Positions 6,400 through 61,762 of a DNA stretch of 64,000 nucleotides are shown piece by piece. The DNA lies in contig CM046870.1 of assembly GCA_025617745.1 (NCBI GenBank), forward strand, positions 8,992,303 through 9,056,302. The letters are read 5' to 3'. The notes beneath the pieces were generated by a model. It was given only the letters and a program-made list of their open reading frames with translations. It was not told the DNA's origin and searched no databases. The stretch comes from Heliocidaris erythrogramma (lineage: Eukaryota; Echinodermata; Echinoidea; Camarodonta; Echinometridae). Every line of letters begins with the position of its first letter. The first letter of the stretch is position 1. The position numbers and the translations under genes are program-made.

Positions 6400-8095
6400 C
6401 GTGGCCTGTCGGTCAGCTTCCTGGGATGCCCCGGGTACTGTATTTCTTGGGTGGACGTCAAGAAATCAACTAGTGTAAGGAGTGGCGTAGCATCGGTCAA
6501 GAAATTTAGGGGGGCACTGGTATTGTGGGGGCACCGATCTTAGTTGAATTACGAATTAACGAAGCTAACGATTTGGGGAGGGGGAGGGAGGCCTGGAGGG
6601 GGTGCTATCATCCCCTTCCTTTCATCGCGTTCCTTTTTCCGATCTAGCCTTCTTTTTGCATCCCCCCCCCCCCCCGCCAGTCGGCAGGGGGCGGGTGTTT
6701 TATGATGTCGATACTCTGTACTGTATTGTAGAAAATAAAAATAAATTAGACCAACCAAACCTAAATTATTGCATCTCTTTTGGTTTAATTCCCGATAAAT
6801 TATCAAATGCAAAAGCCAAATAATCTTTTAATACTGAAACAATTAATGTGAAACTCAATATAGCTAAATAAACTGCATTTACAATTTAAGATATTATTGA
6901 CGAACGAATTTGCGAATAAGTCAATAAAGTCAAAAAGCCATTTTCGGAAACTGCATCATCATGTAATAAAATTAATTCCTGGTTTATAAAATCATATCAG
7001 ACTAAACTCAAGAAGCAAGCATCTTTCCAAAAATTATCCCAAAATATTCTGGTTCAGTATTTTTGCCGAAAATAACGAATCATGTAATCCAACAGTTTAA
7101 CTCAAGTAAGTTAAAATAATTTAGAATGCTAAACAGGTGAAACTGCATCAAACTCACAAAAGCTAAAACTCATGATAATGAAATGTAAATAATGAATTAT
7201 TCGGTGTTATTCAGCCTTCGGAAAAATGATCAACATTACCAACATAAACAAAGCTAAACATACTATGAAAATCATATAAACAATTCAATTTTAGAGAATA
7301 GAAAATGTTCTGATGCTTACCTGTATTGTAGAAAATAAAACACAAGGAGTTTAATTGGGTGTACACTACTTGCTGTTTCTCGTGGAATCACAATAATGAT
7401 GCCACTTTTAGCTTTCCCAGCATTTATACACAAGCCAAACCAACTCTGTGTTTTCTCTTACAATACAGTAGGCTATTCCATTAATCCATTAGGGTTGTAC
7501 AAAATACACTTGCAGTTTGTAAATTATCCCTCAGTAAAATATCATTTATATCAATTTGATAAACTGTATATGACTGAGGATCAAAATGTATCATGTAAAA
7601 TAAATATTAAATCATAAATCCAAAGAATAATATCATACTTCTTATTGCTCATATAAAACACCCCTCACCTGGACTGTTCCATTTCTACATTACCAAGCAA
7701 CGCTCGCTGGCCAAAATGGATGTAACACTAACAGCATATTGAATAAGATGGTGCCCGCCCCAATTTACTAGTACTCTTAATTATAAAATATTACTTTAGA
7801 TTTCTCCAATGCATAAAGGCAGATATTCCCATGTCCAATATCAACTCTCTATTGGACGTTTTGCATGGTCAGCAATTAAGGGGGACGGGACGGAAAACAA
7901 ATATTCCAGCCGTTTGTCCCCCACCCCCCCCCCCCTTCCGAAAATTAGAAATACCAGATCTTCTGTCTAAATGGTGATTACCTCCTTTTTTGCATTTACC
8001 TATTAGATGAAAAGTGCACTAAGATTGCCCAATTTTTTGTCTCCCTTGTTGGTTATCCAACCTTCAAAATATTTAATGAGGAATTCGACAAAACC
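6400..8095. other. Non-coding spacer with poly(C) runs
   Basis: Holds poly(C) at about 6661-6675 and 7921-7936. A CTGTATTGTAGAAAATAAAA phrase occurs twice (6719-6740 and 7321-7340), so this may include dispersed repeat copies. No gene seen. Confidence 0.4.
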
Positions 8096-8139
8096 TTGCA
8101 AAATAGGGATGCATGTTCTCCTCTAGAAATTCTGGGAAC

Positions 8140-8161
8140 TTCTTTCCTCTTTTTGTTTTTG

Positions 8162-8192
<31 letters not shown>

Positions 8193-8290
8193 TGTTTCTG
8201 TGTCTTTGTTTTATTTTGTTTGTTTGTTTGTTTGTTTGTGTTTTTTCGTGGTTTTTTTTTTTTTTTTTTTTTGGGGGGGGGGGGGGGGTG
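8140..8290. repeat. (GTTTT)n/(TTTG)n low-complexity tract ending in T and G runs
   Basis: Degenerate GTTTT/TTTG units from 8150 to 8240 run into about 20 T and then about 16 G. Open frames over this tract on both strands are artefacts of composition. Confidence 0.8.
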
Positions 8291-8739
8291 AGGTGAACCG
8301 TATACCCCCTCCTTCCCGTCACCGAAAAAAATCGTCGCCTCTGGTTGGCACAGAAACCAGTAATGTCGGATATCCGTAACTATCAAAATGTTTAGTATCA
8401 AGGTTTAGTAAAAGTTACAAACTTTGTGCTAAATTGCTTGAAAGGTGTAGGAGAGACGAAGTAAAACGTGATAGAGGCATCCAAAGGGGCTGCGGAAGCG
8501 GGGGGGGTCGGGTGGGTGCTGCCCCCCCCCCCCCCCCGACAACTTTATTTTATTTTATTTTATTCTCTTCTGCAATTGTATAAGTACACGCAAATTTTTC
8601 GATAACAACAATAGAATATGATAGAATAGGTATTTTTTCTGACAATGAATGATAAATAAACAAATATATTACATGACCTATATAAATGCTATCACGTGAC
8701 TATCGTAAGAAGGAAGACAAGAGTTATAATCCGAGATAT

Positions 8740-8811
8740 GACGTAAAATACGTCATACCTCGGAATATAACGTCCATAATGCCGTTATATCCGTAGGTAT
8801 GACGTCACGTG
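8740..8811. promoter_or_regulatory. Palindromic TGACGT cluster with CRE and E-box (TGACGTCACGTG)
   Basis: CCGAGATATGACGT and ACGTCATACCTCGG (about 8731-8763) form a near-perfect hairpin. Another inverted pair, ATAACG...CGTTAT, follows. At 8800-8811 TGACGTCACGTG overlaps a full CRE palindrome and a CACGTG E-box. The block lies just upstream of the first recognisable codons of the KIAA1958-like gene, so a promoter role is plausible but not shown. Confidence 0.35.
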
Positions 8812-8826
8812 TATGTGCGATCGCGC

Positions 8827-10432
8827 AGGCCAGGCCCCAGTCGGCCTGTTTCTGTTGAGGAAGAACTAGACGAAATCAGGTAACTATATAGGCACCAATC
8901 CTGCAGCTGAGCTCATGAATATTCATATCAGAAACCCCTATTTGAAGACTTTGAAAGATACTACAAGTTTGGGACTTGTATTTTCTTACTCAGTCACCTT
9001 ATTTTTAAATCAGCAAAAGAAAATTTCATAATATAAACCTCTGCCGAGGTTCAAACTCGTGGTCCTTTCACCAAGAGAGGACTGGATTATCCGATTGCGC
9101 CACACAGAACAGCTGCTCGATGCCCTTGCTCGTTTTATTATATCGCTACAATTCGTTTTCATGAATATTCATGCCGACTAGTTTTGACGGAATAAACCGT
9201 ATTTGACGCGATATGAATATTCATGAGCTCGGCTGCAGGATTGATCAAAAGGATGCTCGTTCAACTAAAAAGGTCATTAATGTAGCAGAGAATGTGTTGG
9301 AAGGCTTATAGTGAACACAAAGGAGTCCAAATTCCAGAAACAATTACAGCAGATGAACTGAGTAAGTTTCTTCGATCATTTTATGCCGAGGTTCGGAGAT
9401 CGAATGGTAAATTGTATAGCAAGCGCTCGATGATAACACTGCGATATGGATTGCAGAGACACTTCAAGAAATTCGGTTTTGACATCGTAAGTGACGCCGA
9501 GTTCAAAGGGGCAAATGAAATGTTTCACGCTGTTCTAGTCAAGCTTAAGAAGGAGGGTAAAGGGTCAGTTGATCATAAAGAACCAATTACGCGAGAAGAT
9601 TATTTGAAAATCAAGTCATCAACAGCAACTGATGTTAACACCCCAAAGGACTTGAAAACAAAGTTTTTATGGACATAATGATGCATTTGTGCAATCGAGG
9701 GAGAGAAAACTTGCGCAGTTTTTCCAAAACAGACTTTGTAGTTGTGACAGATTCAACAAATGAGAAATATGTTTACCTCGCCAGTGACAAATTGACCAAG
9801 AATCATCGTGGGGAATCACTCGACGACTCCCGCAGTCAACAAGGAAGGATGTATGAAACCCATATAAGCCTGACTGTCCTGTAAAGACATTTGAAACCTA
9901 TGTTTCCCATCTGAATCCACTGTGTGATGACCTTTTCCAGCGTCCAAAGATGAATGTGCAAAGTGATCAACAAGTGTGGTATTACAACTCTCCTGTTGGA
10001 AAGAATACTTTAGGGGAAAAGATGAAGAAAATATCCCTTGAAGCGCATACATCGAAGGTTTACACAAACCACTGCCTGCGCTCAACTTCTATCCATGTTC
10101 TGCATGCGAGTGGATTTGAAGCAAGACACATAATGTCCGTATCCGGACACAAATCTGAAAGTAGTATCAAACACTATTCTTACGTCGATGAAGCTAAGAA
10201 AAGACGCATGAGCAGATCTACAGCACCGTCCACTCCTCGCATTCACACCGCTAGCTCAACTAGTGCAGGACCTGGTCCAGGACCTAGCAGTGCAGCTCTC
10301 GTGCCAGTGCCAGAAGATGCATCATCACAATCTCAGTCATCATCCCAAATAAATGTTGTATCCAACAAGCTGACCCTAGACAAGAAGCGACACTACAATT
10401 TTTACAATTGTACAGTCAATTTTTACAATTAA
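8827..10432 (+). pseudogene. KIAA1958/DUF3504-type protein derived from a Crypton tyrosine recombinase, frameshifted
   Basis: The first exon-like piece (8827-8879) encodes SRPVSVEEELDEIR. After an apparent intron at 8880-9238 (AG|GTAACT ... CTGCAG|G) the frame resumes with IDQKDARSTKKVINVAENV. The rest is spread over three frames: YSEHKGVQIPETITADEL and FLRSFYAEVRR (9292-9666), HLCNRGRENLRSFSKTDF (from 9669), then CPVKTFETYVSHLNPLCDDL (from about 9870), PVGKNTLGEKMKKIS, TNHCLRSTSIHVLHASGFEA and the recombinase-like signature RHIMSVSGHKSESSIKHYS. In the Crypton family the NHxxR and GHKS..(x)n..Y positions are catalytic-core residues (tyrosine-recombinase fold); these are visible. Frameshifts near 9300, 9665 and 9855 break the gene. 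The tail after 10200 is Ser/Pro-rich. It could be a dead transposon copy or a decayed domesticated gene. Confidence 0.75.
8896..9243. mobile_element. TIR element (33-bp arms) carrying a tRNA-like sequence, inside an apparent intron
   Basis: The 33 bases at 8896-8928 (starting CAATCCTGCAGC) are the inverse of 9211-9243 with one mismatch; both contain CATGAATATTCATAT. Between them, 9038-9110 reads on the minus strand as a tRNA-like sequence with an A-box-like TGGCGCAATCGGATAATCC and a B-box-like GAGTTTGAACCTC. The element fills almost the whole gap between two exon-like pieces of the KIAA1958-like gene, and its right arm contributes the CTGCAG|G acceptor. No clear target-site duplication was found. 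Confidence 0.75.
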
Positions 10433-10439
10433 TCTCTAA

Positions 10440-11041
10440 CTTTTTACTAGGGCCTAGGCCTATGAGTATGACTAAATCTAGACAGAGACTAGGCCTATTC
10501 AGCATTTTTGTGTTACATTCAAACTTTATGGAGTTGGAATTTTAGCGTGGAGTTTTTTCCAGTTTGGAACTATTTCACAGTTGGAGTTGATCTTTCTTTC
10601 GGATTTGTTAACATCTGATAGTCTGCTGCAACTACGGAAATCAAATGGTGAGTCAGCACAATTTTCTATTTTATCTTGTTTCGTATCTATATCTAGGTCA
10701 TTGTAATATAACAGATATTGACTTTCTCCTTCGGGAACAACATAACATTTCATTTCTCTTGGGTAGTTTAATTTTTGTCTTGGGATACTATATTTTTCCT
10801 TAGCGCTATGCGATTCGGAAGAATATAATATCCCTCGACAAAAAATATAACTCCCCTCGAGGAACTCAAATGTTATATTGACCCTCAAGTCAGTCAATAT
10901 CTGTATAATATCCATTATTATTTTCAATAACAAACAGATAAATTGTCAAAATATTATATTTCATTATGATATGTCAATTCCCGAAGAAGGACTGCCATCA
11001 GTAAATCAAATTCTTGAAAATATGACCGTCCCCAAATTTAC
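10440..11041. other. Spacer without recognised gene
   Basis: AT-rich sequence downstream of the recombinase-like gene. A minus-strand frame over 10526-10933 gives a peptide with no family resemblance. Confidence 0.35.
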
Positions 11042-11325
11042 TTTAATAACAATAACACATAACATTTATATTGCGCTTAATACAATGTTTCTAAGCGCCG
11101 AAGTAGTATTATTACCCTGGCTTAAGCCAAGCTCCCTATAAGGAGCTGAAAGCATTCAAGGAATAAATTCCTACCAGGTACCCATTTACTACACCTGGGT
11201 GGAGAGTGGCAAATGTAGATTAATGTCTTGCCAAAGGACATAATGCCGCGGCGGGACTCGAACCGCAACCATGAGATCCACAGTCCGGTGACGTATCCAC
11301 TAAACCACGACACCTCTCCTTTAAC
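11042..11325 (-). mobile_element. tRNA-derived SINE, nearly complete
   Basis: On the minus strand the head reads GGTGTCGTGGTTTAGTGGAT (A box) and then GGTTCGAGTCCCGCCGCGGC (B box), both at tRNA-like spacing. The conserved body follows (GTCCTTTGGCAAGACATTAA, CCACCCAGGTG) and the element ends in an AT-rich tail at 11042-11062. It is the same family as 1192-1525, but here the pol III head is preserved. The left end carries the phrase TTTATATTGCGCTTAATAC, related to TTTATATGGCGCATTTCC in the first copy. Confidence 0.8.
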
Positions 11326-11429
11326 ACATTTGTTCACCAGAATGGATACTTCATTTAAAAAAGTAATAACAAAAAACAAAACAAAACAAAACATAAATCA
11401 TGCGGATAGCAATGATACTGACAATGTAT

Positions 11430-11430
11430 G

Positions 11431-11461
<31 letters not shown>

Positions 11462-11468
11462 CGATGAA
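11430..11468. repeat. (GAT)n microsatellite
   Basis: About twelve GAT units with a single C interruption near the end. Confidence 0.9.
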
Positions 11469-11938
11469 AGAAAAAATGGCAGAATTATAGATGATTAGGA
11501 TTGAAGAGTTCACACAGAGATTTCATCTTGAATATTTTGATACGAGCATCGTTTTAACTTTGGCCTTAAATGAATAGAGGGAGCAAATTTTATAGATTCT
11601 GGGAGAGAATTCCAAAGGTCTTAACCATGGTGTCTTATGGATCTGTGGGCAATAAGTAAATTTGCGGAATTACGAGTGGGGTAAGAGTGAATGGATGAGA
11701 ATAAAAAAAGAAATATTAGATCTTTATATCTAATTTAAAAATGACTTATTTCTTAAGCTTGCAAAACTGTAACCTCCCCCACCCCCCCCCCCCCAACAAA
11801 AAAACAGAAAAAAAAACAACAAAAAAAAAAAAACACTACAGCCCGTGGCCTCTGATACAATTGAACGCATCCTGCCACACGGGGGCCTCAAGTGGCAATA
11901 TTTTTGTCGGTGATCAGGGCCCTCTACCCCGGGGTGGC

Positions 11939-12230
11939 CACTCAGATATATGGGTGTACACATGCGCGTCGAAGAAAACGCGTAAAAGGGGTCCTTTTTT
12001 CAGGTGGAACGCGTAACGCGCGTAACGGGGTCCAAAAACGCTGATTTTCAACAAAAAGGGGTGCTCGTTGACTAATCTGGCCAAAGTCAAACCTGTTTAG
12101 GGGGGTTGGATGATGAAAAACCGCGCAAAAATCCCCGTTTAGGGGTCTTTTTTCATCCAAGTATAAAACCTGTTTAGGGGGTATTTTGAAAACCCATGGA
12201 CACGCATGTGTACACCCATATATCTGAGTG
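11939..12230. mobile_element. TIR element, 292 bp with perfect 28-bp ends
   Basis: The ends are perfect inverses: CACTCAGATATATGGGTGTA then CACATGCG at 11939-11966, and the reverse complement at 12203-12230. The interior has repeated AGGGGT / GTTTAGGGG phrases and CGCG-rich words (ACGCGTAACGCGCGTAACG). It is directly followed by a poly(C) run. No coding capacity. Confidence 0.85.
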
Positions 12231-15212: not shown

Positions 15213-15509
15213 AAGTTTCTTATTCAGAAAAAAGGTTTGCGGTACAACCATGTGAGTTGGAATAACTCCACGTTCCGGTCAGAATGCTCTGGCCGTCGTC
15301 AGGAGAATGAGAAGAGCGAATAAATCAGCAGAATTTATATATGAAGCAGCAATTCACTTAATAAAAATGGATGCAAATCATTCTCCTGACGACGGCCAGA
15401 GCATTCTGACCGGAACGTGGAGTTATTCCAACTCACATGGTTGTACCGCAAACCTTTTTTCTGAATTACAACTTCACCATGCAAACCTTCAAATCCTAAG
15501 TTTCTTATT
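15213..15509. mobile_element. Penelope-derived insertion with perfect 89-bp inverted arms and 12-base target duplication
   Basis: Arms 15222-15310 and 15378-15466 are exact inverses. The insertion (15225-15497) is flanked by AAGTTTCTTATT at 15213-15224 and 15498-15509. Between the arms a plus frame encodes KSAEFIYEAAIHLIKMDANH, which aligns with the C-terminal LRFLEAAYIQ segment of the GIY-YIG Penelope ORF at 20839-21543. The right end (CATGCAAACCTTCAAATCC) recurs at the second copy, 33583-33676. I read this as a truncated Penelope-like 3' end with an inverted 5' copy of itself. Confidence 0.75.
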
Positions 15510-24444: not shown

Positions 24445-26420
24445 CATTTTTCATGAATATTCATATTTTTGATTTAGAGGTGCTAATTTCTTCTAAGTAT
24501 TATATTTTTTATTTACATGTACACATTTTTTTATACAGATTATTATCAACAAATTTATGTTCCAAATCGCTATGTATTAGAATATACTATGTTAAGGTAT
24601 AAATGAGTATCTGATTTATGTTCTTGTTGATTTTCTACTTAGTATTGAGCGTGCCTATGGAATGTAAACAATAACCACGTGTTAGTTATAATGCATTTTT
24701 GTGCATGGTTTTTCTTGAGTTTCTTCCATCGCTCACATGTAATGGAGTGCTCTAATATTTTGTGCTTTTGGTCATAACTTACTATTTTTTAACTTATCAG
24801 TTCTCAAATTCCAGTTTACTACTTCACCACGTTGCAACTCTCGCTTGGGCCTGATACAACTTATTCAGTTGGACATTTCATCTTGATCTTTGCAACGCAG
24901 TTTTTCATTATAATTATTTCAACCTAGTCAAGGTCTGACTTCGCCTTCGCAGAGCTAGAGCCGGCCGTAGCTTCTGTCAGTGTTATTCAACAGTCACTTC
25001 GCTTTGTCTTCTTTCAACGACCTGTGTTAGTGTGTAAATATCAACTTTCTTCCAGTTTCGAGTCCGTCCGTTGGTGTAACGTTCGCCCAGATAACCACTA
25101 GTTATTTCACTACACTAGCAGGAACTCGTGGGACAAGATCTATACTCTACACTACACAGTATTTTACTTAGCGGGAACAATCAAGCCGGGTTTTCTCTTC
25201 GATTTCAGAGTTATTTTTTTGCTCAAGTTGCTGTTCGTAGCCCAAAACATAACATTTACAGACTCCTAATAGATCTACATGTACAGCTACATTTATTCAC
25301 AGCGAAGCATTGAATGACTTCTAACCAAGGCCAATTTTCAATAGACTACTTCGACTTTGTCTTTGTTCTTGTGTCTATTCTTATACCAATATTCGCTTTA
25401 AAGTTTAGATCGTTTATGTATTAATTACGACCATTCAAGTGAAAAAGAAGTATTTCATACTTTTGTAACTGTATGTTCACTGTGTGAATCTTGACATGAC
25501 AAGTATCTTGATCTAGTCCGGCATATTGGTGAAATAATTGTGCACTTTTTCATAAAAGCATGAAATTTAGCATGTATGTGGAGTTTGGGATGCCGAATAA
25601 TTCTGGATATGGAGCCACCTAACATTCGGACCCTGGGACCCGTTGTGCCAATTTAAAAACATGGCCCTCTCAGGGTCTTTTCCCTCCAAAGTTGATGTAA
25701 TCAAATCTAGTTTGATATTATATGAAATATGTAATATTTCCTGGCCTCTAAAATCAGACAAATGCTTTAGGTGCCCATTTTTTCAAATAAAGGGCCATCT
25801 TATGGATCAAAATATTATAACGTCACTGATTTGCTGAATATAAGTAAAATGCTTCTAATTATGATCAGTTGACATAACGTCTTTGAAATCAGTGAGATAT
25901 GCCATCATATGCCCATCATTCACAACCCTGAAATTAGATAGCTCTTCTCAACACTCGTTATGCTAAAGTGCAATCAAATTAGTGCGATGGGCGGGGTAAG
26001 CACTTAAAAGCACTTTCAATTTCGTTTTCAAGCTATCGACTTCCACAATTGAGCATTCATTTTCGTAACACACATACATATATGCAAAGAGTGATTTGTC
26101 AATTTATTAATGGAATGTCACTTCCACTTTTCATCGTTACTTTCATCATCACCATGATCATTATTCTTTTTATCTGAACATCTTTCTTTTGCTCAACATT
26201 TTACGTGATCTTCAATATAAATCCTTGTCATCATGATTATTTTTTTTTTAATTTAATCTTCGTTTTACATCTTTATTTTCATCATGATCATATGGTTTTT
26301 GTGATCTTCACTTCACATCTTTATTTTCATCATGATCATCATAATTGGGTTTTTTTTAATCTTCATTTTACATCTTTATATTCATCATCATATGTGATCC
26401 ACATAGTTCTGAAATTGATA
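24445..26420. other. Spacer without recognised gene
   Basis: AT-rich. 26205-26395 repeats the phrases TTCATCATGATCAT and CATCTTTATTTTCAT several times (a degenerate minisatellite). GAGCATTCATTTTCGTAA near 26045 is related to the motif blocks at 24120 and 28690. Confidence 0.4.
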
Positions 26421-27003: not shown

Positions 27004-28086
27004 CACACACAGAAATTTTTACAGAAATTATGTAAATTGTTTTGTTAAATAGGAACTCCATAACTTTTTTGTAAAATTTACTTAACTTACCAAAATTATT
27101 GTAAATGTAAATTTTTAACAAAATATTCGACAAATTATGTAATGTATGTTAAATATAGGTACTTAAAATTCATGTGTAAATTACTAACAAACAATTCTAC
27201 ACATGTATTATGTGCTTGGGCAAATTCAGTTGCCCAATTGTTTCCTTTTTCCTCCAACCCAGGTAAAAAAAATAAACCTGCTTGTTATGTCTTTCTGGGT
27301 CTTAACTTATCAATCCTAACCTATCCTACTTTAAGCTATCGTATCCTATCTCTAACCTATCCTATCCTAGTACTATCCTATCCAGTTGGTACAATCTAGT
27401 GCAAGCTCTTATATACCCATTATAATTTTTTATGCATTTGGTAACAGTTATTAAAATCGGGCCACCCCAAACCATACGCTACTGAAAATTCATGAATATT
27501 CATATAAGTGTTTCCCCCAATATTGAGGGAAAAATACGAAAATGCATTTTTTACAAAACCGTTTGCAAAGCATTTTTACTTAATGACGACAAATTACATT
27601 GTGCATGTTAAATAAACTTAAAGAAAAGGGCAATATTGCAAAAATCTTTATGAAGAAATATCTTACAGCGTTATTTTGCAAGATTTGTTCAGTCAGTTTT
27701 ACATAACTGTGTATCAAAATCATGTTAATGTCAACTGACATTCGTAAAATGTATTTTATACACAATAGTTTACAAAACATTTCACTTAATGATGACTTAT
27801 AACATCTGCATGATAAAATTCCCTTTAAAAAATACTTGTACTTAACACATTTTACATAATAGGCATTTCTTTTGCAAAATGAATTTTACTTAAATAGTGC
27901 TAAGTAAATGTTACATAAAATTTTACATTTTGCATGACACATTATATGCGAAATGTAATTCATTACAAATATTTAGTAAAATACTACATAAAAACATTCA
28001 TTTGAGACAATTTTACATATATTAAGTAAAAATTTTACAAAAGGAAGTTTACATAATGAAATATTAAGTAAATATTTCTCTGTGTG
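27004..28086. mobile_element. TA-flanked AT-rich element inserted in the transposase, 1083 bp
   Basis: The ends are inverted: CACACACAGAAATTTTTACA on the left and, on the minus strand at the right, CACACAGAGAAATATTTACT. TA lies at 27002-27003 and 28087-28088, and joining the flanks restores the transposase (EECGY then N). The interior is made of variants of TTTACATAA / TTTACTTAA and their inverses, with a CCTATCCTA-type run at 27300-27390. No coding capacity, so it is non-autonomous and was probably mobilised by a mariner-type enzyme. Confidence 0.8.
27300..27390. repeat. Degenerate CCTATCCTAA minisatellite
   Basis: About ten imperfect units of CCTATC / CCTAAC inside the TA-flanked element. 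Confidence 0.6.
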
Positions 28087-54766: not shown

Positions 54767-56421
54767 ATGGCGTCCTCTAGTTCTTTGTCCTCAGGAGAAG
54801 AGGATTACATTAATGCAGCAGATAATCCAAAATTTCGGGATACACCGGAGGTATTATCTTCCGATTGTCACACTCTCCGTGAGGAGAGTGATGACGATTC
54901 AAATTGTTCATGGAAAACGGCAATGAACAGAAATTCTGTCAGATCCAAGAAAAGGGCAAGGGTAAGAAGCAATAGCGATGGTATGTTAAATACGAAGAAC
55001 AAGAAGATTCCTAAATTCTCAACTCCAACGCATTCAAGTAGGAAAGTGGTCATTGTTGGTCTGGAAAAAAAATGTATGCAGTGCTAATCAAGTGCGGGTT
55101 TACAGAGAAATCCATGATCTCGTTGGAAAACTTGTAGGTATGGTTAAAGTAAAAAATATGTTGATTTTGACATGTGAGAATGAGAAACAAATTATAACCC
55201 TGTTACAGTTAACACAGTTGGCTGGTTTAGACGTAAAAGTTACACGTTATGAAGAAGATCAGGTGGTTACAACGAAAGGGGTCATCCATAGAATCGATAC
55301 TCAAATCAGCAATGAAGAAATAGCAGATGTATTAAGAGAACAGAATGTAATAAATGCTAAGCGATTTAGGAAGAAGATCAATGGAGAAATGGTACCCACT
55401 CCATCGGTACTTTCAAAGGTAAAAGTAAACCGGATGCTGTAAATTTTCTCTATGAGATTAGGCGTGTGGATAACTTTGTCCCACCCGTGACAAGGTGTCA
55501 TAAGTGCCAACTATTTGGTCATATGAAAGATAATTGTAGGGGTAAAATCACTGATCTCTATGTAAAAATCTGGATAGAGCATTGGCTTGTTGAGGTGAAG
55601 CCGCTAGGCCGCCATGCTACCACTCCCATTTCTATAGCTGGAGATTGGAAAGGCCAATCACGTCGAAGCTGGTTCAATGGCTGTGCAGTGATGCGCAGCG
55701 TGCGCATTGTATTGGGAGTGGTTTAAATGGCCGCACTGTGGCTTCAGATGTTTGCACAGTGCGTATGGACCAATGCTCTATCCAGATTTTTACATAGAGA
55801 TCAGTGGGTAAAATACGTTGCGTGAGATGCGGAGGCGAACATGAATTTGACGCTTGCGCACAAAAGGAAAACAGGAAGTGCTTTAGATGTGGAGATAATC
55901 ACTCAGCGGCGTATCAAGGATGCAAATCTTATATAGAAGCTAAGCAAATACAAACAATTAAACTGAATGAAAAGCTCACATACGCGCAAGCGACAAAAGT
56001 GTATCGCACTCAGAAAAATGTAAATGTTGTAGAGACAACTAATAACACAGTCAACACGAGTAACTCCAAAGAGAACCCTCAAAGTAAACAGAACAAATTA
56101 GATTCCAACTTAAAATTACAGAGTCCTGGACATGAAACAAGCCCTCACTCCCATATCCCACCTGCGGCTCAAGTACACAAGAGGAAAGAGAAAAGGCGGG
56201 AAAGAGACGGGGAGTCTGAGCAGGGTTCTTCAAATATTAATCAAACTGGCTTTCCCAATAATGTGACATCATTAGATTTGATTATGTTTATTCTGGTTGC
56301 GATACGTAAGTTACTTCTTTCTGAGAACGATGATCAATTTGTGGAAGCTGCTGTCAAAGCGGGTAAAGATTTTTTAAAGGCGGACATTACCATGGAAATG
56401 GTAAAAAGCCGCCTTAAATGA
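54767..56421 (+). pseudogene. LINE ORF1: nucleic-acid-binding protein with three CCHC zinc knuckles, broken
   Basis: The start ATG at 54767 gives ASSSSLSSGEEDYINAADNP and a Lys/Arg-rich basic region. It slips frame in an A8 run at about 55065 (A7 would keep frame) and again at about 55408 (one base missing). The knuckles are CHKCQLFGHMKDNC, then, beyond the 258-bp MITE at 55549-55806, CVRCGGEHEFDAC and CFRCGDNHSAAYQGC. Removing the MITE plus one 8-base duplication joins RGK to IRCVRC in frame. The C-terminal part is Asn/Ser-rich. The protein would coat the element RNA. It ends TGA at 56419-56421, overlapping the ORF2 ATG (ATGA). Confidence 0.85.
55549..55806. mobile_element. 258-bp foldback MITE with 8-base target duplication, in LINE ORF1
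   Basis: Perfect 37-base terminal inverted repeats (55549-55585 and 55770-55806, starting CACTGATCTCTATG) continue inward with diverged inverted similarity (GAAGCCGC...CCGCCATGC...CCACTCCCA). GGTAAAAT is duplicated at 55541-55548 and 55807-55814. An 8-base duplication is typical of hAT or P-type transposases. No coding capacity. Confidence 0.92.
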
Positions 56422-61043: not shown

Positions 61044-61227
61044 TGTGTTTTAGGGGAGGATTTGAAATCCCACGTGTTGTAGGTTCATACAAATTAAGGC
61101 TTAGTAAACGAAGAAGCTTGACTGGGGAGGAATTTTTAATTTGTAAACAAATCTTTAGGCATTTTACTCCCAGTGTTAAAGATCGTATGCTCGATCTGTA
61201 ATGAAAAACACAAGTCAGAAAAAATTG

Positions 61228-61299
61228 GAACCAGCGGGATTCGAACCTGTCATCTACTGCTTGCCGGGCAGCGACTTAACCACCAGGCTATTCTGGTTC
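61228..61299 (-). tRNA. tRNA-like sequence in repeat unit 1 (probably not a functional tRNA)
   Basis: The minus strand gives GAACCAG paired with CTGGTTC as acceptor, an A box (TAGCCTGGTGGTTAAGTCG), an anticodon arm GCTGC-CCGGCAA-GCAGT (GGC, Ala-type, but position 33 is C) and a B box (GGTTCGAATCC). Two extra bases lie between acceptor and D arm and the T stem has mismatches, so it is tRNA-derived and likely pol III competent rather than a decoding tRNA. Confidence 0.5.
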
Positions 61300-61521
61300 A
61301 CGGCCAAGTCACGATGAACTAGAATCAAATACACAAGATCCTCTTCTTCCTGACTCATTAATATTCATTTTAAACGGTCCGCCGCAGACAATGGTTAGTA
61401 AACGAAGAAGCTTGACTGGGGAGGAATTTTTAATTTGTAAACAAATCTTTAGGCATTTTACTCCCAGTGTTAAAGATCGTATGCTCGATCTGTAATGAAA
61501 AACACAAGTCAGAAAAAATTG

Positions 61522-61593
61522 GAACCAGCGGGATTCGAACCTGTCATCTACTGCTTGCCGGGCAGCGACTTAACCACCAGGCTATTCTGGTTC
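61522..61593 (-). tRNA. tRNA-like sequence in repeat unit 2 (probably not a functional tRNA)
   Basis: Identical to the unit-1 sequence across the tRNA-like part, 294 bases downstream. Confidence 0.5.
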
Positions 61594-61762
61594 ACGGCCA
61601 AGTCACGATTAACTAGAATCAAATACCCAAGATCCTCTTCTTTCTGACTCATTAATATTCATTTTTAACGGTCCGCCGTAGACAATGGTTAGTAAACGAA
61701 GAAGCTTGACTGGGGAGGAATTTTTAATTTGTAAACAAATCTTTAGGCATTTTACTCCCAGT

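What the first reader, a model, noticed from the sequence alone, without database searches (positions are those of the whole stretch)
8827..9300. An apparent intron that is a TIR element supplying its own splice acceptor
Coding text stops at ATCAG|GTAACT (8879/8880) and resumes in frame after CTGCAG|G (9238/9239). The 359-base interval is almost wholly an element with 33-base inverted ends, and the acceptor lies inside its right end. The left end contains the same CTGCAG. This is what a transposon-born intron (introner) would look like.
Basis: partly seen in the sequence, partly recalled or inferred. Interest (0 to 1): 0.7.

Follow-up and report, generated by a model that had tools for sequence, protein, structure and literature searches.

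The report
Transposon insertion mimicking an intron
A small, recently active DNA transposon landed in a mobile-element gene copy that is now broken; its ends happen to look like splice sites, so it resembles a newborn intron, but nothing here shows that it is spliced.

Summary
The element belongs to a young family: 39 other near-full-length copies, 92 exact tips. Intact copies are about 395 bp, with ends GGTAAGCACTATATAGG… and 9-bp target duplications (17 of 39 and 20 of 34 match at 8 or more of 9), the anatomy of a Mutator-like MITE. All 14 close relatives of the host gene examined, a Crypton-like recombinase, are uninterrupted here. The GT "donor" is the transposon's tip. The in-frame join exists because a 32-nt deletion removed the right tip and duplication (inferred). 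An intact copy spliced at the same two sites would leave 35 nt, out of frame, though other AGs would not. The host copy lacks its start region and has three frame breaks. No copy among 73 tested by reading frame (20 scanned in Pfam) was shown to be in an exon. Splicing could not be tested. Verdict: most likely an ordinary MITE insertion that mimics an intron.

The parts
8879..9243 (+). MULE-type MITE copy: left tip present (3 nt shorter than consensus), 10-nt internal deletion, right tip truncated; the last 4 nt (9240-9243) are shared with the host by microhomology
8879..8929 (+). left TIR, from the tip GGTAA through the 34-nt arm
   Evidence: arm; tip from alignment with 39 copies:
9210..9243 (+). 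right TIR remnant; the outer 20 nt of the consensus are missing
8870..8878 (+). inferred left copy of the 9-bp target duplication; the right copy is lost in the deletion
   Evidence: inference from empty sites and the 9-bp duplications of the family
8880..8881 (+). GT of the donor-like site, part of the TIR tip
   Evidence: rank 52 of 6961 GTs by a recalled matrix
9233..9238 (+). CTGCAG, acceptor-like site inside the right TIR
   Evidence: rank 396 of 6556 AGs by a recalled matrix
9240..9243 (+). ATTG microhomology at the inferred deletion junction
9035..9109 (-). tRNA-like stretch with A-box-like and B-box-like motifs (motifs recalled; weak)
   Evidence: read by eye; ARAGORN negative, fold z -0.73
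8857..8878 (+). 5' fragment of the host Crypton-like ORF (EEELDEI)
9244..10432 (+). remainder of the host Crypton-like ORF (QRICH1/DUF3504 tyrosine recombinase), with frame breaks near 9299, 9641 and 9862
8700..8840 (+). upstream part of the Crypton-like element, shared with relatives

Best explanation
A non-autonomous Mutator-like transposon (MITE) inserted after 8878 in a Crypton-like tyrosine recombinase gene copy, presumably duplicating 9 bp. Shown: the family, its ends, its 9-bp duplications elsewhere, and the uninterrupted host site in 14 relatives. Inferred: during or after insertion, one 32-nt deletion between two ATTG words removed the right tip, the right target duplication and 3 host bases. 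The transposon tip GGTAAG... resembles a 5' splice site, and CTGCAG|G in the TIR resembles a 3' splice site. The private deletion happens to bring the GT-AG join into frame (one extra codon). The host copy is a decayed transposon, so the intron look is most likely coincidence.
For: Own-genome search: 39 further near-full-length copies at 92-95% identity; 92 exact tips, 0 for the reversed control. 9-bp duplications at 8 or more of 9: 15 of 39 copies at fixed ends, 17 of 39 when the ends may shift by a few bases, against 0.5% of mismatched left/right pairs under the same rule, and 20 of 34 further copies. The window copy is 1.4% from the 395-bp consensus. 14 of 14 close host relatives examined read GACGAAATCATTGATCAAAA without interruption, as written in a note before that search was answered. 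A single 32-nt deletion explains the right junction exactly, with 4-nt microhomology. Start region lost and three frame breaks in the host copy. Comparator in the same window: a TIR element (37-nt perfect arms, 9-bp duplication GGGTAAAAT) inside a LINE-like ORF at 55549-55805.
Against: The donor is strong (52 of 6961) and the acceptor fair (396 of 6556) by a recalled human-like matrix, and the join is exactly in frame. The comparator's in-frame joins use weaker sites. The order of insertion and host decay is unknown, so the copy could have been alive when hit. No transposase partner with these tips was found. The window copy itself shows no target duplication.
Confidence: 0.9

Rival explanations
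1. Introner: the MITE family carries its own donor (tip) and acceptor (inside the TIR or near its end) and is spliced out when it lands in exons; the right-end deletion restored the frame and was kept.
For: Tip GGTAAG intact in 32 of 39 left and CTTACC in 31 of 39 right ends; in-frame join here; three other AGs of the consensus (at 303, 330 and 387) would leave 102, 75 and 18 nt, all multiples of 3, stops not checked. Introners with TIRs, and ones that add codons, are in print (PMC9860276, section 7 read).
Against: At the sites proposed here an intact copy leaves 35 nt. The host is dead. Junction-spanning open frames over 300 nt occur in 11 of 39 copies, against 31% of random window positions of like length (a first control on shorter flank stretches gave 9 of 78), and in 3 of 34 further copies, so no clear exon bias. 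Two copies appear to sit inside ordinary introns about 95-115 nt upstream of an exon with its own acceptor (one exon by eye only). The acceptor here has 10 of 17 pyrimidines; the two ordinary acceptors have 16 and 11 of 17.
Confidence: 0.06
2. An ordinary ancestral intron of the Crypton gene into which the MITE later inserted.
For: Strong GT at 8880 and frame preserved.
Against: 14 of 14 close relatives examined have continuous DNA at the site; both GT and AG lie in element sequence.
Confidence: 0.01
3. A variant of the best explanation: the right end was lost by aberrant transposition (truncated insertion) rather than by a later deletion.
For: Only the right junction is altered, and 4-nt microhomology fits either event.
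Against: No direct evidence separates the two events; of 51 further loci with one exact tip, 34 have a recognisable second end, so incomplete copies are not rare.
Confidence: 0.25

Closest known systems
Mutator-like MITEs (MULE-MITEs; family features recalled)
   Same: Long TIRs (51-54 nt), 9-bp target duplications, about 395 bp, many similar copies
   Different: No transposase with the same tips found; the superfamily name rests on anatomy
Introners (Gozashti et al. 2022, PMC9860276; section 7 read in full, other passages seen)
   Same: TIR-bearing non-autonomous DNA element in coding text, with GT at one end and AG at the other
   Different: No set of introns made of the family was found, no splicing evidence, dead host gene, intact copies out of frame at these two sites
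Spliced transposon insertions: maize Ds (Giroux 1994), C. elegans Tc1 (Rushforth and Anderson 1996), Mu1 aberrant splicing (Ortiz and Strommer 1990); seen only as reference-list entries of PMC2586383, contents otherwise recalled
   Same: A DNA transposon in a gene can offer splice sites near its ends
   Different: Those were shown on RNA; here there is no RNA
Crypton / DUF3504 elements (Kojima and Jurka 2011, PMC3212892; passages seen, parts of the abstract among them)
   Same: Host ORF matches QRICH1 and DUF3504 models and has relatives in many copies
   Different: Host only; Pfam scores lie just below the curated cut-offs

Membership tests
Mutator-like MITE | 9-bp target site duplication | tested here: met
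   15 of 39 copies at 8 or more of 9 with fixed ends, 17 of 39 with small shifts, control 0.5%; 20 of 34 further copies. Some copies share flanks and are not independent. The window copy has no duplication at its arms; its right one is inferred lost.
Mutator-like MITE | long terminal inverted repeats | tested here: met
   consensus ends pair over 51-54 nt with one 3-nt gap
Mutator-like MITE | short and multicopy | tested here: met
   395-bp consensus; 39 scored copies besides the window's, 92 exact tips
Mutator-like MITE | shares tips with an autonomous MULE transposase element | tested here: inconclusive
   31 MULE-domain matches exist, but none of 30 compared lies within 595 kb of an exact tip, and no tip with up to 6 mismatches is in the 8 loci held, about 3.3 kb each
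Introner | at least four introns of similar sequence (threshold used in PMC9860276) | tested here: inconclusive
   73 copies examined by junction reading frame, 20 of them in Pfam; none shown to be an intron; no gene annotation or RNA
Introner | splicing on RNA | not testable with these tools
   no transcript data
Introner | removal leaves the reading frame open | tested here: inconclusive
   at the proposed sites an intact copy would leave 35 nt (not met), but three other AGs would leave multiples of 3; the window copy is in frame after its own deletion
Crypton-like element (host) | tyrosine recombinase / DUF3504 domain | tested here: inconclusive
   DUF3504 29.2 bits (cut-off 29.7), Phage_integrase 25.1 (27.1), QRICH1 28.8 (30.8): E 1e-5 to 1e-6 but each just below its curated cut-off

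The most novel reading that the evidence does not exclude
A young animal MITE family whose TIR tip (GGTAAG), needed for transposition, is also a consensus 5' splice site and whose TIRs hold acceptor-like AGs, so that new exon insertions are at least partly spliced: a proto-introner in which transposition and splicing share the same end sequence.
Probability: 0.06. Interest if true: 0.65.

Novelty: new member of a known kind. Interest (0 to 1): 0.22.

Why it matters
It shows how closely a plain transposon insertion can imitate an intron: the GT was the transposon's own tip and the frame was set by a deletion. Empty sites in relatives and intact copies of the element are what tell the two apart. 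[quoted passage not shown]

Tried and rejected
Explaining the left 16 nt GTAACTATATAGGCAC as host sequence or filler, and a palindromic CTGCAG/TGCA target duplication at the inner TIR: rejected once other copies showed the 16 nt to be part of the TIR tip.

Using Pfam's QRICH1 profile to decide the host spacing: with window-derived variants the match began downstream of the insertion region in 7 of 7; sequences typed from recall gave no answer either.

Relatives in other collections: viral contigs by protein and by TIR pattern, phage records, prokaryote genomes: none. Rfam on 8000-12000: 4 matches below the gathering scores, none in the element. Paper searches for tRNA-like or Mutator-type MITEs gave 0 papers. 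For transposon-made introns, one search gave 0; one search gave 12 papers (8 listed), one opened for passages (PMC2586383). Searches gave 3, 1, 15 and 6 papers; of these PMC9860276, PMC3212892 and PMC13326754 were opened (section 7 of the first in full, otherwise passages).

A tRNA origin of the internal stretch: A-box-like and B-box-like motifs by eye (recalled consensus), but ARAGORN finds no tRNA and the fold is no better than shuffles (z -0.73). Left open.

Exonic copies: 10 of the 11 longest junction frames of each sample were scanned in Pfam (20 of 73 copies; L036 and L091 were left out by oversight). The one significant hit (proteasome subunit, L027) is the exon beside an intronic copy. 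One copy (L081) may lie in a LINE-like frame, by eye only; Pfam gave nothing for it.

Full report
What was claimed. Coding text is said to break at 8879/8880 and resume at 9239, the gap being a TIR element that supplies the splice acceptor. The sequence bears this out. The join is in frame. By a human-like splice matrix written from recall, the donor ranks 52 of 6961 GTs and the acceptor 396 of 6556 AGs in the window, both strands. In-frame GT-AG joins as such are common: 24 of 64 pairs in that stretch.

The element is a family. The own genome (1.06 Gb, 26 contigs, unnamed) gave 39 further near-full-length copies at 92-95% identity; 40 of 2049 first-look candidates were scored. The exact 31-nt tip occurs 92 times and its reversed control 0 times. 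The copies show that the 34-nt arms seen in the window are the inner part of a longer TIR: intact ends are GGTAAGCACTATATAGGCACCAATCCTGCAG... and its complement. The consensus is 395 bp with TIRs of 51-54 nt, and the window copy differs from it by 1.4% substitutions. Target duplications are 9 bp: 8 or more of 9 match in 15 of 39 copies at fixed ends, in 17 of 39 when the ends may shift, against 0.5% of mismatched pairs under the same rule, and in 20 of 34 further copies with a recognisable second end, out of 51 fetched. The 17 of 51 without a clear second end were left out of that count. Several copies share flanks (for instance L016, L029 and L031), so they are not all independent insertions. 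This anatomy is that of a Mutator-like MITE (family features recalled). MULE transposase domains exist in the genome (31 matches), but none with these tips was found near 30 of them.

The host. The broken ORF around it matches QRICH1, DUF3504 and Phage_integrase models, each just below its curated cut-off; DUF3504 derives from Crypton recombinases (PMC3212892, passages). A protein search in the own genome gave 150 matches, 20 fetched as loci, the window itself among them. Of these, 14 are close relatives that align to both flanks; 5 belong to a more distant group whose left flank did not align, and these were not used. All 14 read GACGAAATCATTGATCAAAA without interruption, giving DEIIDQKDARSTKK (one residue differs in L050). 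In 13 of the 14 the EEL codons stand directly upstream; in L050 that part is altered. The site had been written down in a note before the search was answered. The window copy is 1.9-2.3% diverged from three relatives with open frames of 428-429 aa. It has lost its start region and has frame breaks near 9299, 9641 and 9862. It is a dead copy of a transposon, so selection for correct splicing is not expected, although the order of events is unknown.

How the intron look arose. The left tip of the element, GGTAA..., begins at 8879, directly after host ATCA, so AG|GT is host A plus transposon GGT. The tip has lost 3 nt, which replaces the consensus +5 G by C. On the right, one 32-nt deletion turns an intact end plus inferred duplication into the observed sequence exactly. 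It can be placed in five ways, so it has 4 nt of microhomology (ATTG); 3.6% of 20,000 random deletions of 15-60 nt in the window have that much or more. The ATTG is why the TIR seems to run into the coding text. The spliced product would be one codon (Arg) longer than the relatives. Without the deletion, splicing at the same GT and CTGCAG would leave 35 nt, out of frame. Three other AGs of the consensus would leave 102, 75 and 18 nt, multiples of 3, with stops not checked; the last lies eight bases from the element's end and is missing in the window copy. So the in-frame join at these sites is private to this copy and has roughly a one-in-three chance given any deletion (inference).

Do other copies act as introns? 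Junction-spanning open frames over 300 nt occur in 11 of 39 copies, against 31% of random window positions of like length. An earlier control on shorter flank stretches gave 9 of 78 and is biased low. In the further copies it is 3 of 34. Pfam on 10 of the 11 longest frames of each set found only a proteasome exon. There the MITE lies in an ordinary intron, 114 nt from the exon motif. Another copy (L042) lies about 95 nt upstream of what looks by eye like an exon with its own T-rich acceptor (no Pfam match). Nothing shows a copy forming an intron by itself, but there is no annotation or RNA, and only part of the family was read.

A comparator in the same window: 55549-55805 is a TIR element with 37-nt perfect arms and the 9-bp duplication GGGTAAAAT, inside a frame that reads by eye like a LINE zinc knuckle. 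It also allows in-frame GT-AG joins, though with weaker sites. So a TIR element in a transposon frame is not unusual here.

Conclusion. Most likely a recent Mutator-like MITE insertion in a decayed Crypton-like gene, with coincidental splice-like ends. The bold reading, that the GGTAAG tip makes this family a proto-introner, is not excluded and could be tested directly with RNA-seq.

Noticed in passing
55549-55805: A second TIR element: 37-nt perfect arms, 9-bp duplication GGGTAAAAT, inserted in what reads like the zinc-knuckle region of a LINE ORF1.
   Followed up: yes
10711-10904: Long imperfect palindrome (73% over 199 columns) downstream of the Crypton-like ORF; short inverted repeats also lie upstream at 8723-8805.
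   Followed up: no
15217-15471: Hairpin with 94-nt arms, 98% complementary.
   Followed up: no
61101-61762: Tandem repeat of a 294-bp unit, 2.3 copies, 98% matches.
   Followed up: no
11130-11330: tRNA-like SINE candidate on the minus strand, by eye only.
   Followed up: no
24452-24465 and 27491-27504: The palindrome CATGAATATTCATA found in the MITE TIR also occurs singly here; with up to 1 mismatch the window has 5 matches against 0.05 expected.
   Followed up: partly
L085 and L086: Two MITE copies of the same length (408) with the same 9-bp duplication about 85 kb apart on C6, suggesting a segmental duplication.
   Followed up: no
L093, L094, L115: The flank GGCTTGTAA recurs at tips on C8 about 1.4 kb apart and at a two-ended copy on C20, suggesting duplication or rearrangement.
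   Followed up: no
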